NCBI RefSeq assembly: GCF_025420585.1
Contig: NZ_JAOEGB010000032.1
Location: 1 to 64,000 of the forward strand
Direction of reading: 5' to 3'
DNA: 64,000 nt
Source of the DNA: Planotetraspora sp. A-T 1434
Lineage (GTDB): Bacteria > Actinomycetota > Actinomycetes > Streptosporangiales > Streptosporangiaceae
The notes under the pieces were generated by a model, which saw nothing but the letters and a program-made list of their open reading frames with translations, was not told the DNA's origin and searched no databases. The stretch's first letter is position 1. Each line of letters starts with the position of its first letter. The translations under genes and the position numbers were made by a program. This document shows positions 44,501 through 53,500 of the stretch, piece after piece.

Positions 44501-47500
44501 CTCGTCGAACGCGGCGGCGTACACCGTGGAGGTCTCCAGCAGCCCGGCGCCCATGCCGGCCCGCTGCGCCCCCTGCCCGGAGAAGAGGAAGGCGAGCCGC
44601 TGGTCCGGCACCGCGCGCCCGGTGGTCACCCCGGGGTGGCGTCCGCCGTCGCGGAGGGCCGCCAACGCCTGAGCGGGATCCGCAGCAGGGCCCACGTCCA
44701 CGACGGCCCGGTGCTCCAGCCGCGGCCTGCGGGTGAGGGTGTACGCGACGTCGCGCGGCGCGGCGGACCCGGCGGCGAGGACGTCGTGGACGAGGCCCGC
44801 CTGGGCGCGCAGCGCGGTCTCCGTCTTCGCCGACAGCACGAACGGCACGCCCCCGCCGAGGTCCGCGCCCGCCCGGCCGAGGGCCTCGGTCGTCGCGTCC
44901 CCGGTCTCGGTCGCCGCCGTATTGGGGCGCGCGCTGTCCCGGCCGGGGGTCCCGGCGCCTGAAGCGGTGGTGTCGGTCGTGTCGGTCGTGTCGGTGGTGT
45001 CGGTCGTGTCGGTGGTGTCGGTCGTGTCGGTGGTGTCGGTGGTGTCGGTGGTGTCGGTGGTGTCGGTGGGGGGTTGCTGGAGGATGAGGTGGGCGTTGGT
45101 GCCGCTGATGCCGAAGGACGACACCGCCGCCCGCCGGGGGCGTCCCGGCCAGGCCCACTCCACCGGGCGGGTCAGCAACGCCACACCCGAGCCGTCCCAG
45201 TCCACATGCGGACTCGGCTCATCCACATGCAACGTCGCGGGCAACCGCTGATGCCGCAGGGCCATCACCATCTTGATGACCCCGCCCACCCCCGCCGCCG
45301 CCTGAGCATGCCCGACATTGGACTTCAACGACCCCACCCACAACGGCACCCGCCGGTCGCGCCCATAGGCCGCGATCAACGCCTGCGCCTCGATCGGATC
45401 CCCCAGCCGGGTCCCCGTCCCATGCGCCTCCACCACATCCACATCACCAGGACCCAGCCCCGCATCCGCCAGCGCCCGCCCGATCACCTGCTCCTGAGCC
45501 CGCCCGTTCGGCGCCGTCAGCCCGTTACTCGCCCCGTCCTGATTCACCGCCGACCCCGCCACCACCGCCAGCACCCGATGCCCCAAAGCCCGCGCCCGCG
45601 ACAGCCGCTCGACCACCACCACCCCGGCGCCCTCGGCCCACCCCGTGCCATCCGCCGACGCCGAAAACGCCCGGCACCGCCCATCAGCCGACAACCCCCG
45701 CTGCCGGGAGAACTCCACGAACATCCCCGGCGAGGCCATCACCGCCACCCCACCGGCCAACGCCAGCGAACACTCCCCCGACCGCACCGCCCGGACCGCC
45801 AGATCCAACGCCACCAACGACGACGAACACGCCGTATCCACCGTCAACGCCCGACCCCGCAAACCCAGCACATACGCGATCCGCCCCGACGCCACGCTGG
45901 ACTCGTTGCCGGCCAGCAGCAGGCCCTCCAGCTCCTCGGGCACCGTGCGCAGGCGGGCGGCGTAGTCGTCGTACATGGCCCCGATGAAGACCCCGGTGTC
46001 GCTCTCCTTCAGCGACAGCGGGTCGATCCCCGCCCGCTCCAGCGCCTCCCACGACACCTGCAACAGCAACCGCTGCTGCGGATCGGTCGCCAGCGCCTCC
46101 CGCGGGCTCATCCCGAAGAACGCCGCGTCGAACTCGCCCGCGTCGTAGAGGAAGCCGCCCCTGCGGGTGTAGGCGGTGCCCCGGTGGTCGGGGTCGGGAT
46201 GGTAGAGGCGGTCCAGGTCCCAGCCCCGGTCGTCCGGGAAGTCCCCGGTCGCGTCGACACCGTTCGCCACCAGATCCCACAGATCCTCCGGCGAGGCGAC
46301 CCCGCCCGGGAACCGGCACCCCATCCCCACGATCACCACCGGATCGTCATCCGCCGCCCGCACGGCCGCCACGGACGACGTCGCCCTGTCCTCCGCGGTG
46401 AGGAGCCCGAGCAGGTGCCCGGCGAGCGCGGTGACCGTGGGGAACTCGAAGACGACGGTGGCGGGCAGGGTCAGCCCGGTCAGCGTGTTGAGCCGGTTGC
46501 GCAGCTCGACCGCGGTCAGCGAGTCGAAGCCGAGCTCCTTCAGCGGACGGTCGCCGGGCACCTCGGCCGGGTTAGCGTGGCCGAGGACGGCCGCGGCCTG
46601 CTCGCGGACCAGCCGGGTGACGAGGTGGACGCGCTCCTGCGGCCGCTCGGCCCGCACCCGTCTCGCCCAGGCTCCGCCGGGCGTGCGCCGGGCCCCGCGC
46701 GGGAACGCCACGAGGCGGGAGAACAGGGCGGACAGCCGGCCGGCCGCCGCCTCCTCCCGCAACACGGCGTCGTCGAGGGGCGAGACCACCACGTACGGCT
46801 CGTGCGCCCGGTCGAAGGCGTCCAGCGCCGTGGCGGTGGCGAGCGTGCCGACGCCGTACCGGGCGAGCCGGGCCCGGCCGGCGTCGTCCAGGCCGCCCGT
46901 CATGGCGCTGGCCTCGTCCCAGACGCCCCAGGCGATGGACGTGGCGGGCAGGCCGAGACCCCTGCGGTGCTCGGCCAGGGCGTCGAGGAACGCGTTGGCC
47001 GCGGCGTAGTTCGCCTGTCCCGGCACTCCGAAGGCGGCCACGGCGGAGGAGAACAGCACGAAGCGGTCCAGCGGCAGGCCCGCGGTCAGCTCGTGCAGAT
47101 GCCAGGCCGCGTCGGCCTTCGGCCGCAGCACGGCGGCCAGTGCGTCCGGGGTCAGCTCGCTGAGGGTGGCGTCGGCGAGCACGCCCGCCGTGTGCACCAC
47201 GCCGCGGAGCGGGCGGCCGGAGGGGACGGCGGCCAGCAGATCCGCCAGCGCGTCCCGGTCGGCGACGTCGCAGGCCGCCACCGTGACCTCCGCCCCAGCG
47301 GCGCGCAGGTCGCGGGCGAGCGCGTCCGCACCCGGGGCGTCCGGTCCGGAGCGGCTCACCAGCAGCAGGTGCGGGGGCCGGGCCGAACCGGTCAGCCTGC
47401 GGGCGACGAGCGCCCCCAGCGTGCCCGTGCCGCCCGTGATGAGCACCGTCCCCGGGTCCGCGTTCCCCTCATCCGAGGCGTCCCTTTCGCCCACCGGGGC

Positions 47501-50500: not shown

Positions 50501-53500
50501 GTTGGTGCCGCTGATGCCGAAGGACGACACCGCCGCCCGCCGGGGGCGTCCCGGCCAGGCCCACTCCACCGGGCGGGTCAGCAACGCCACACCCGAGCCG
50601 TCCCAGTCCACATGCGGACTCGGCTCATCCACATGCAACGTCGCGGGCAACCGCTGATGCCGCAGGGCCATCACCATCTTGATGACCCCGCCCACCCCCG
50701 CCGCCGCCTGAGCATGCCCGACATTGGACTTCAACGACCCGACCCACAACGGCACCCGCCGGTCGCGCCCATAGGCCGCGATCAACGCCTGCGCCTCGAT
50801 CGGATCCCCCAGCCGGGTCCCCGTCCCATGCGCCTCCACCACATCCACATCACCAGGACCCAGCCCCGCATCCGCCAGCGCCCGCCCGATCACCTGCTCC
50901 TGAGCCCGCCCGTTGGGCGCCGTCAGCCCGTTACTCGCCCCGTCCTGATTCACCGCCGACCCCGCCACCACCGCCAGCACCCGATGCCCCAAAGCCCGCG
51001 CCCGCGACAGCCGCTCGACCACCACCACCCCGGCGCCCTCGGCCCACCCCGTGCCATCCGCCGACGCCGAAAACGCCCGGCACCGCCCATCCGCCGACAA
51101 CCCCCGCTGCCGGGAGAACTCCACGAACATCCCCGGCGAGGCCATCACCGCCACCCCACCGGCCAACGCCAGCGAACACTCCCCCGACCGCACCGCCCGG
51201 ACCGCCAGATCCAACGCCACCAACGACGACGAACACGCCGTATCCACCGTCAACGCCCGACCCCGCAAACCCAGCACATACGCGATCCGCCCCGACGCCA
51301 CGCTGGACTCGTTGCCGGCCAGCAGCAGGCCCTCCAGCTCCTCGGGCACCGTGCGCAGGCGGGCGGCGTAGTCGTCGTACATGGCCCCGACGAACACGCC
51401 GGTGTCACTCTCCTTCAGCGACAGCGGGTCGATCCCCGCCCGCTCCAGCGCCTCCCACGACACCTGCAACAGCAACCGCTGCTGCGGATCGGTCGCCAGC
51501 GCCTCCCGCGGGCTCATCCCGAAGAACGCCGCGTCGAACTCGGCGGCGTCCCGCAGGAACCCTCCGTGCCGCGTGTACGAGGTGCCGGGCCGCCCGGGGT
51601 CCGGGTCGAAGAGGGCGGCGAGGTCCCAGCCGCGGTCGGCGGGAAACTCGCCGATGGCGTCGACGCCGTTGGCGACCAGATCCCAGAGGTCCTCCGGCGA
51701 GGCGACCCCGCCGGGGAACCGGCACCCCATCCCCACGATCACCACCGGATCGTCGTCCGCCGCCCGTACGGCCGAGACGGGCGCGTCCGCGCGGGGGCCG
51801 CCGGCCAGATGGGGGGCCAGGGCGGCGGGGGTGGGGTGGCTGAACAGCGCGGCGGCCGGCAGGTCGGCGCCGAAGGCGTCGTTCAGCCGGTCGCGCAACT
51901 CCACCAGGCCCAGCGAGTCGAGGCCGAGGTCCCGGAACGTAGTCTCGGGGTCGACGCGCCCGGGGTCGGCGAAGCCGAGCACCGCCGCCACTTCCTCGAC
52001 GACGCGGCGCTCCCCGGCCGCCGTACCGACGGGAAGGGCGGCCGGGGTGGAAACCGGCTCCGGAGCGTGGGCCGAGACCGGGGCGGGGACCGCCGGTGCA
52101 CCCTCACCCGGGGCCAGCCAGTGACGCTCACGCTGGAAGGGATAGGTCGGCAGCGGAACCCGGGGGGCGCCGGGCGGGAAGACGGCGTCCCAGTCGAGGC
52201 GCACTCCGGCGGTGAACAGCTTGCCGACGGCGGCTTCGACGTCGTCGTCCTTGCCGAGGACCGGCACGAACGGCGCCTCCGCCCTCAGGGTCTCCCGCCC
52301 GGCAGCGCTGAGCGCCGTCCCCGGCCCCGCCTCGACGAAGATCCCGGCCCCCAGCGCACGCAACCGGGTCAGGCCGTCGGCGAAGCGGACCGTACGGCGG
52401 GCGTGCTCCACCCAGTAGCCGGCCCAGTCGTCCGCGCCGGCGAGGTCGAGCGGTTCGCCGGTCACCGTCGACACGAACGTGATGCGGGCCCTGCAGTACG
52501 TGAGCCCGTCGAGCACCGCGCGGAACTCGCCGAGCGCGGGGTCCATCAGCGGCGAGTGGAAGGCGTGGCTCACCGGGAGCCGCCGGGTCCGGTGCCCGCG
52601 CGCGGCCGCGAGTGCGGCGACGGCGTCGAGCGCCGCGTCCTCCCCCGCGACGACGACCGACCGCGGCCCGTTCACGGCGGCGACGACCGCGAGGCCGTCC
52701 ACCTCCGCGAGCAGCCCGGCCGCCTCGTCCTCCGAGGCGCCGACGGCGAGCATCCCGCCGCCGGAGGGCAGCGCGTCCATCAGCCGCCCTCTGGCCGCGA
52801 TCAGCTCGGCGGCGGACGACAGGTCGAGCACGCCCGCGACGTGCGCCGCGGCCACCTCCCCGATGGAGTGACCGGCGACGAAGGACGGCTCGACGCCGAG
52901 CGCCTCCAGCAGGCGGAAGGTCGCCACCTCGACCGCGAAGATCGCGGGCTGGGTGAAGGCCGTGCGGTCGAGGAGCCGGGCCTCCTCTCCGCCCGGCTCG
53001 GACCACACGACGTCGGGGAGCGGCCGGGGCAGCCGCTCGCCGAGCGCCGCCACGGCCTCGTCGAACGCGGCCCGCCAGGCGGGGTGGTCGCGGTGGGCCC
53101 GCCGTCCCATGCCGGGCCGCTGGCTGCCCTGCCCGGGGAACAGCACCGCGACGGGTGCGGTCCTGGCCCTGCCCGTGACGAGGCCTGCCGCGGGGCGTCC
53201 CTCGGCCAGCGCCGCCAGCCCGGCCGTCACGTCGCCCGTGATCGCCGCCCGGTGCTCGAATGCGGTCCGGGTGGTCGCGAGGCTCCGCGCCAGGCCCGCG
53301 GCACGCTGCCCGCCGAACGGCCCGTGTACGCCGAACGGCTCGGGGCCGCCGGAAACGTCAGACCCGCCGGATAGCTCAGACCTGCCGGAAACGTCAGACC
53401 CACGCGGCGCCTCGGGCCCGCCGAGGAGGTCGTGCTCGGCCACGAGGTCGCGCAGCCGGGCCGCCTGCTCCCGCAGCGCCGCGCCGGTGCGCGCGCTGAG

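What the first reader, a model, noticed from the sequence alone, without database searches (positions are those of the whole stretch)
44966..51769. KS1 and KS2 are nearly identical: recent gene conversion within one PKS gene
Blocks 45068-46363 and 50474-51769 align at a constant 5406-base offset with about three differences over the first 900 bases, while the adjoining AT, DH and KR domains of modules 1 and 2 are clearly different (methylmalonyl versus malonyl AT). The KS N-terminal part is less alike, so a patch was copied. The pair could recombine and delete one whole 1802-residue module in frame.
Basis: seen in the sequence. Interest (0 to 1): 0.6.

Follow-up and report, generated by a model that had tools for sequence, protein, structure and literature searches.

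The report
Two PKS domains kept identical
Two neighbouring chain-building domains of one giant polyketide-making enzyme keep overwriting each other's DNA in this bacterium and its relatives, and in one relative the unit between them looks as if it was cut out through the same patch; the kind of patch is already known.

Summary
[quoted passage not shown] From orthologous clusters: (1) in three genomes the copies match each other but differ between genomes (49, 57 and 41 concerted sites, no orthologous one), while the flanking AT follows module position, so conversion recurs. (2) Here one event ran KS2 to KS1 and overwrote a KS1-type loop kept in five relatives. (4) The Actinocorallia outgroup has the pair without GC skew and with only partial TA skew, so the skew probably grew later by synonymous C to G/T changes. 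Open: read-level proof of the assemblies, the product, and whether the loop swap changes function.

The parts
35579..54895 (-). PKS gene, 6438 aa: KSQ-AT-ACP loading module, then three KS-AT-DH-KR-ACP modules
   Evidence: ORF; Pfam domains; translation (loading KS has Q at the active site, DTAQSSS)
50353..51542 (-). near-identical tract, copy 1 (module 1: most of KS1 and most of the KS1-AT1 linker)
44896..46136 (-). near-identical tract, copy 2 (module 2: most of KS2 and part of the KS2-AT2 linker)
50471..51760 (-). KS1 domain
45068..46366 (-). KS2 domain
51257..51542 (-). 5' part of the tract in KS1 in which H11081 and G073 keep a KS1-type sequence; here a KS2-type loop stands in its place
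45851..46136 (-). the matching donor stretch in KS2
50422..50474 (-). 9-base tandem array in the KS1-AT1 linker, 5.9 copies (Thr/Asp repeats)
44965..45069 (-). 9-base tandem array in the KS2-AT2 linker, 11.7 copies
46137..46283 (-). divergent KS2 segment that bounds the tract on its 5' side (paired with 51543-51689 of KS1)
49136..50092 (-). AT1, methylmalonyl-type motifs, outside the tract
   Evidence: coordinates; motifs
43643..44590 (-). AT2, malonyl-type motifs, outside the tract
   Evidence: coordinates; motifs

Best explanation
The two blocks are a GRINS-type repeat pair in a cis-AT polyketide synthase, kept alike by recurrent, non-reciprocal homologous recombination (gene conversion) between KS1 and KS2. 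Shown: within-genome homogenisation in three genomes; a module-2 to module-1 transfer here that replaced a KS1-type loop; skew concentrated at third codon positions. Inferred: that recombination repair does the copying; that the near-identity of the tract exposes the module between the copies to in-frame deletion, as G313 suggests; that most of the skew was added after the pair was already alike.
For: Shared tract 50475-51256 (782 sites), concerted against orthologous sites: W/H11081 49:0, W/G073 57:0, H11081/G073 41:0. AT linker plus AT start: 0:180, 1:191, 0:193 (Fisher p about 1e-46 or less). Trees: in the tract W_1+W_2 (88/98), H_1 and H_2 identical, G73_1 and G73_2 identical; in the AT flank module-1 rows together (99/99) and module-2 rows together (99/99), W_1+W_2 rejected, AU p 7.6e-5. 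Direction: at 51257-51542 H11081/G073 keep 34 orthologous against 3 concerted sites, while W_1 is KS2-like and W_2 stays 95-100% like the other KS2. Two further Microbispora assemblies end contigs at the tract: M. siamensis at 51544 and 46137, M. triticiradicis at 51201 and 45795. The GRINS recipe is met. Third-position composition.
Against: No read data: this genome (136 contigs) and H11081 (50 contigs) are drafts, and within-genome identity could in part be assembler smoothing. Sites inside one tract are not independent, so the Fisher values overstate certainty. The W pair in the tract tree is not starred (88/98) and ten rows have unlike letter make-up. In the linker the patterns are mixed because of the array, and G73's copies differ there at 32 aligned sites.
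Confidence: 0.92

Rival explanations
1. Whole-module duplication, after which AT, DH and KR diverged or were replaced and only the KS stayed alike.
For: KS1 and KS2 are more alike than their flanks also in the Actinocorallia outgroup (Ac_1/Ac_2 75-96% per 100 columns of the shared tract), so an old duplication may underlie the pair.
Against: Module 1 and 2 AT types and their order are the same in H11081, G073 and Actinocorallia, so the duplication would be older than these genomes, while tract copies differ by 3, 0 and 0 of 782 sites within W, H11081 and G073. Old duplication alone cannot give 49:0.
Confidence: 0.03
2. Assembly artefact: one KS was collapsed and written into both places.
For: G000 is in 136 contigs; two relatives' assemblies break at this tract.
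Against: The copies differ at 7 sites, in array length by 51 bases and in flanks; the same arrangement is in G073, a genome held as one 8.8 Mb contig, with no difference in the shared tract.
Confidence: 0.03
3. Strong protein-level constraint: KS1 and KS2 must be the same enzyme, so selection keeps them alike.
For: In the shared tract the two W copies encode the same protein (3 synonymous, 0 nonsynonymous codons of 260).
Against: Selection on protein would leave synonymous differences; W_2 and H_2 differ in 32 synonymous codons while W_1 and W_2 differ in 3, and the linker with its array, little conserved between genomes, is copied too.
Confidence: 0.01
4. Both KS were overwritten from an outside source (another PKS cluster or horizontal transfer).
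For: Composition of the tract differs from its surroundings; KS1 changed more protein codons since Actinocorallia (50 of 260) than KS3 did (35 of 258).
Against: Best other match in this genome is 72%; for KS2 the protein changes (39 of 260) are near those of unskewed KS3; W/H11081 tract divergence (49 of 782) is like that of loading module and module-1 body, 6.1-6.4%.
Confidence: 0.01

Closest known systems
[quoted passage not shown] 2021, PNAS; not held, known here through passages of PMC10394414 and PMC9899208)
   Same: About 1 kb, over 90% alike within one cis-AT actinobacterial PKS, strong GC and TA skew, gene conversion
   Different: Here the tract runs on through a linker of opposite skew with a 9-base array. 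The pair joins modules with different AT types, whose order is unchanged in three relatives. GC skew is absent in the Actinocorallia pair.
Concerted evolution of PKS domains (Medema et al. 2014, PMC4256081, passages)
   Same: Domains group by gene cluster, not by position, through internal recombination
   Different: Here limited to part of one KS pair with sharp borders; the authors saw no KS conversion yet between the two meridamycin clusters and suggested that KS conversions are fixed less often
Accelerated evolution of the rapamycin and tylosin PKS (Wlodek et al. 2017, PMC5663706, passages)
   Same: Recombination between modules gives contractions with junctions inside KS or AT
   Different: There driven in the laboratory by an integrated replicon; G313 looks like a natural counterpart, without proof of function

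Membership tests
GRINS | At least 500 bases with over 80% mean identity to another region of the same PKS (150-base windows, step 30, five-window mean; PMC9899208 methods) | tested here: met
   Two regions only in 21496-54895: 50366-51565 and 44996-46165, mean identity 0.898 (alignment score per 150 bases used as identity, an approximation of the published recipe)
[quoted passage not shown]
   0.31-0.32 and 0.29-0.30; baseline of the three genes 0.08 and 0.15
[quoted passage not shown]
   Met by absolute means; signed means are 0.25-0.27 (GC) and 0.21-0.23 (TA); core 51300-50900 is 0.41 and 0.48-0.49
GRINS | Evidence of gene conversion between the copies | tested here: met
GRINS | Link to diversification of neighbouring AT domains | tested here: inconclusive
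   AT1 and AT2 differ in type, but the same AT order is kept in H11081, G073 and Actinocorallia as far as their stretches go; no AT exchange seen
Concerted evolution of PKS domains | Copies group by genome, not by module position | tested here: met
   In the tract for W, H11081 and G073; the flank groups by position
Module deletion by KS x KS recombination | Hybrid KS with 5' part of one module and 3' side plus body of the next | tested here: met
   G313 against H11081 diagnostic sites: ACP end to KS start 32 copy-1-like, 8 copy-2-like; loop part 33 and 2; AT linker 32 and 72; AT start 18 and 86; the segment between (51543-51677) undecided, 19 and 17. Body matches M2
Module deletion by KS x KS recombination | Deletion is derived, not ancestral | tested here: inconclusive
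   Actinocorallia, with the full AT order as far as its stretch goes, falls outside G313+Microbispora, 98/96, but its branch is long and flagged as unsure; one gene region, one such genome

The most novel reading that the evidence does not exclude
This cluster family shows the order of events in the birth of a GRINS: a KS1/KS2 pair already partly homogenised with no GC skew and only partial TA skew (Actinocorallia), then skew written at synonymous sites (C to G and C to T) in the ancestor of Microbispora and G313, then continuing conversion that also overwrites a KS1-type loop, and at last loss of the intervening module through the same tract in G313. (Odds lowered from 0.45 to 0.4 on recheck, because the Actinocorallia core does carry TA skew, 0.23 and 0.31.)
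Probability: 0.4. Interest if true: 0.68.

Novelty: new member of a known kind. Interest (0 to 1): 0.5.

Why it matters
It is a compact natural series for how assembly-line enzymes evolve: copies homogenised, recoded at silent sites, a loop of one KS replaced by its neighbour's, and a whole module apparently lost through the same patch. It gives testable recombination points for PKS engineering, and an outgroup with little skew, which lets one ask which came first, repeat or skew.

Tried and rejected
Fixed-offset comparison hides the 3' end of the tract; gapped alignment was needed. Contig C87 of the same genome holds a PKS whose KS is 72% like the tract, so it is no donor; its aligned parts are 65-73%. 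The genus of the window has no other genome held, so kin came from the family and from named contigs. G274, whose loading KS is 77% alike in DNA, was checked and rejected as an orthologue: loading module 52% and next KS 68% in protein, and neither FrsA-like nor KAS III-like neighbour in the 20 kb fetched. The tract was not found in the M. siamensis assembly (best 71%), in line with collapse of a repeat but also with plain loss; M. triticiradicis shows it only as contig ends (92% and 81% over about 340 bases).

Linfuranone (PMC4675959, whole text read) was considered as product: that cluster has five PKS genes and eleven modules, here three genes with a loading module and six modules, so not supported. 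In one search I compared 47 loci; 44 had a long enough match; 35 of these, Actinocorallia among them, were dropped by my text filter for two exact KSQ strings. One search put Actinocorallia back (its site reads DSAQSSS); the other 34, some of which may be true KSQ rows, stayed out, so the outgroups are four. What the loop touches in three dimensions was not computed; only places it by sequence ahead of the active-site segment of the DEBS KS.
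Full report
OBSERVATION. The PKS genes read on the minus strand; the gene concerned is 35579-54895, 6438 aa, with a KSQ-AT-ACP loading module and three KS-AT-DH-KR-ACP modules. On the 3' side the drop at 45064 is an alignment effect: a 9-base array has 11.7 copies in module 2 and 5.9 in module 1, a 51-base difference, after which near-identity resumes to 44896/50353 with two further substitutions, one more lying inside the array. The longest identical run, 298 bases, exceeds all of 2000 permutations (largest 73).

CLASS. On the coding strand both copies reach GC skew 0.45 and TA skew 0.69 in 150-base windows; the linker at the 3' end is skewed the other way. I applied the recipe printed in PMC9899208 (passages read): only two regions of 21496-54895 pass, 50366-51565 and 44996-46165, mean absolute skews 0.31-0.32 (GC) and 0.29-0.30 (TA) against 0.08 and 0.15 over all windows. 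PMC10394414 (passages) describes GRINS as about 1 kb, often over 90% alike within one PKS, with skews above 25%; the signed TA means, 0.21-0.23, fall slightly below that, the core (0.41 and 0.48-0.49) well above. The original paper is not held. So this is a GRINS pair by the first recipe, and by the second in its core.

RELATIVES. Of 341 genomes of the family, the loading module finds 79-94% DNA matches over both its halves in G072, G073, G074, G078 (87 and 83%) and G313, and 77% over the KS half in G016 (list cut at E 1e-120). G072 and G078 give the same hits as the genomes of the M. siamensis and M. triticiradicis loci, so I take them as these. The three PKS genes are 87-91% identical in protein in G073 and G074. 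The FrsA-like and KAS III-like neighbours are kept in H11081 (95 and 97%), G313 (78 and 82%) and Actinocorallia (66 and 78%), which supports orthology of the clusters.

CONCERTED EVOLUTION. With W the window, H = H11081 and G73 = G073, the shared tract 50475-51256 has 49, 57 and 41 concerted sites for the pairs W/H, W/G73 and H/G73 and no orthologous one; AT linker and AT start together have 180, 191 and 193 orthologous and 0, 1 and 0 concerted. Copies differ at 3 of 782 sites in W, 0 in H and 0 in G73. The trees of tract and flank disagree accordingly. Sites of a tract are linked, so the pattern, not the p value, carries the case. M. siamensis contigs end at window 51544 and 46137, the 5' borders of the tract here; its short contig begins in the linker, 101 unaligned bases before the point that matches 50361. 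M. triticiradicis contigs end at 51201 and 45795, the same point in both copies. This is what a short-read assembler tends to do at an identical repeat (inference).

DIRECTION AND LOOP. In 51257-51542 H and G73 keep distinct KS1 and KS2 (34 orthologous, 3 concerted sites), but W_1 and W_2 differ at four sites only, and W_1 looks like KS2 of the relatives. So KS2 was copied into KS1. This replaced a loop of the type SDYTPRLHEGGG..DGYLLTGG, present in KS1 of H, G73, Actinocorallia and M. triticiradicis and in the one such KS of G313, by the KS2 loop YDDYAARLRTVPEELEGLLLAGNESS. The four differences lie within 51391-51407, perhaps a patchy repair tract (inference). Whether the loop matters for substrate choice is untested.

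DELETION IN G313. The 4737-aa frame of G313 matches the loading module, the KS1 5' part (79%), a tract 92% like KS1 and KS2 alike, then the module-2 body (49-75% per 200 aa), then module 5; module 6 follows. Diagnostic sites against H: loop part 33 copy-1-like, 2 copy-2-like; AT start 18 and 86; the segment just 5' of the tract is undecided, 19 and 17; against Actinocorallia loop part 44 and 16, AT start 23 and 65. AT order: W and G73 malonyl, methylmalonyl, malonyl, malonyl, methylmalonyl, methylmalonyl, malonyl-type; H and Actinocorallia the same over the six that their stretches cover; G313 lacks those of modules 1, 3 and 4. The best-scoring match of G313 to the module-1 body is 43%, about 1.4 Mb away. 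The loading-module tree puts Actinocorallia outside G313 plus Microbispora, 98/96, though its long branch is flagged as unsure. So G313 most simply lost module 1 by a crossover inside the tract. Against: one genome, no reads, and modules 3-4 are also missing through a different junction that leaves the next KS without about 145 N-terminal residues (length estimated from the alignment), so that line may be non-functional or misassembled.

SKEW. GC and TA skew over 50600-51256 are 0.37-0.48 and 0.31-0.35 in W, H, G73 and G313, but -0.01 and 0.07, and 0.01 and 0.10, in the two Actinocorallia copies, and -0.02 to 0.03 in KS3 of W, H, G73 and Actinocorallia. In the core 51300-50900, however, the Actinocorallia copies have TA skew 0.23 and 0.31, against 0.05-0.10 in KS3, so only GC skew is wholly absent there. 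From Actinocorallia KS2 to W KS2 the synonymous changes are 56 C-to-G and 34 C-to-T of 117; KS1 60 and 36 of 116; in the KS3 control 22 and 1 of 67 (the direction assumes that Actinocorallia keeps the old state). Nonsynonymous codons are 39 of 260 (KS2), 50 of 260 (KS1) and 35 of 258 (KS3), which for KS2 speaks for recoding of a resident KS rather than an import. The Actinocorallia pair is 75-96% alike per 100 columns in the shared tract and 68-85% in the KS upstream of it, which suggests homogenisation before most of the skew; a loss of skew in Actinocorallia is not excluded.

KNOWN OR NEW. Concerted evolution of PKS domains is in print (PMC4256081, passages), as are laboratory contractions with KS junctions (PMC5663706, passages). 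Searches for GRINS with PKS terms found 3 and 5 papers, one for KS recombination with module deletion, and 8 and 11 for gene conversion or concerted evolution. I read passages of five of these or of papers they cite and saw the rest in listings only, so I claim no absence from print.

Noticed in passing
44965-45069 and 50422-50474: A 9-base coding array (Thr/Asp repeats) in the KS-AT linker, 11.7 against 5.9 copies inside otherwise near-identical copies: a fast-changing linker. The linkers of H11081 and G073 differ again.
   Followed up: partly
L106 and L102 (G313), junction near 5042545-5042640: Loss of modules 3 and 4 that leaves a KS without its N-terminal ~145 residues in an open 4737-aa frame.
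   Followed up: partly
9170-10453 and 11910-13094: Two P450 genes with stretches 73-74% alike, on either side of an acyltransferase-3 gene (10478-11632): perhaps a local gene duplication.
   Followed up: no
21496-24996, 55688-57226, 57752-58819: The last module has no thioesterase hit; a FrsA-like hydrolase and a KAS III-like protein lie upstream of the PKS genes, are kept in H11081, G313 and Actinocorallia, and could serve release or starter supply (role inferred).
   Followed up: partly
13215-19499: Peptide-type ABC transporter parts and a luciferase-like monooxygenase beside the PKS.
   Followed up: no
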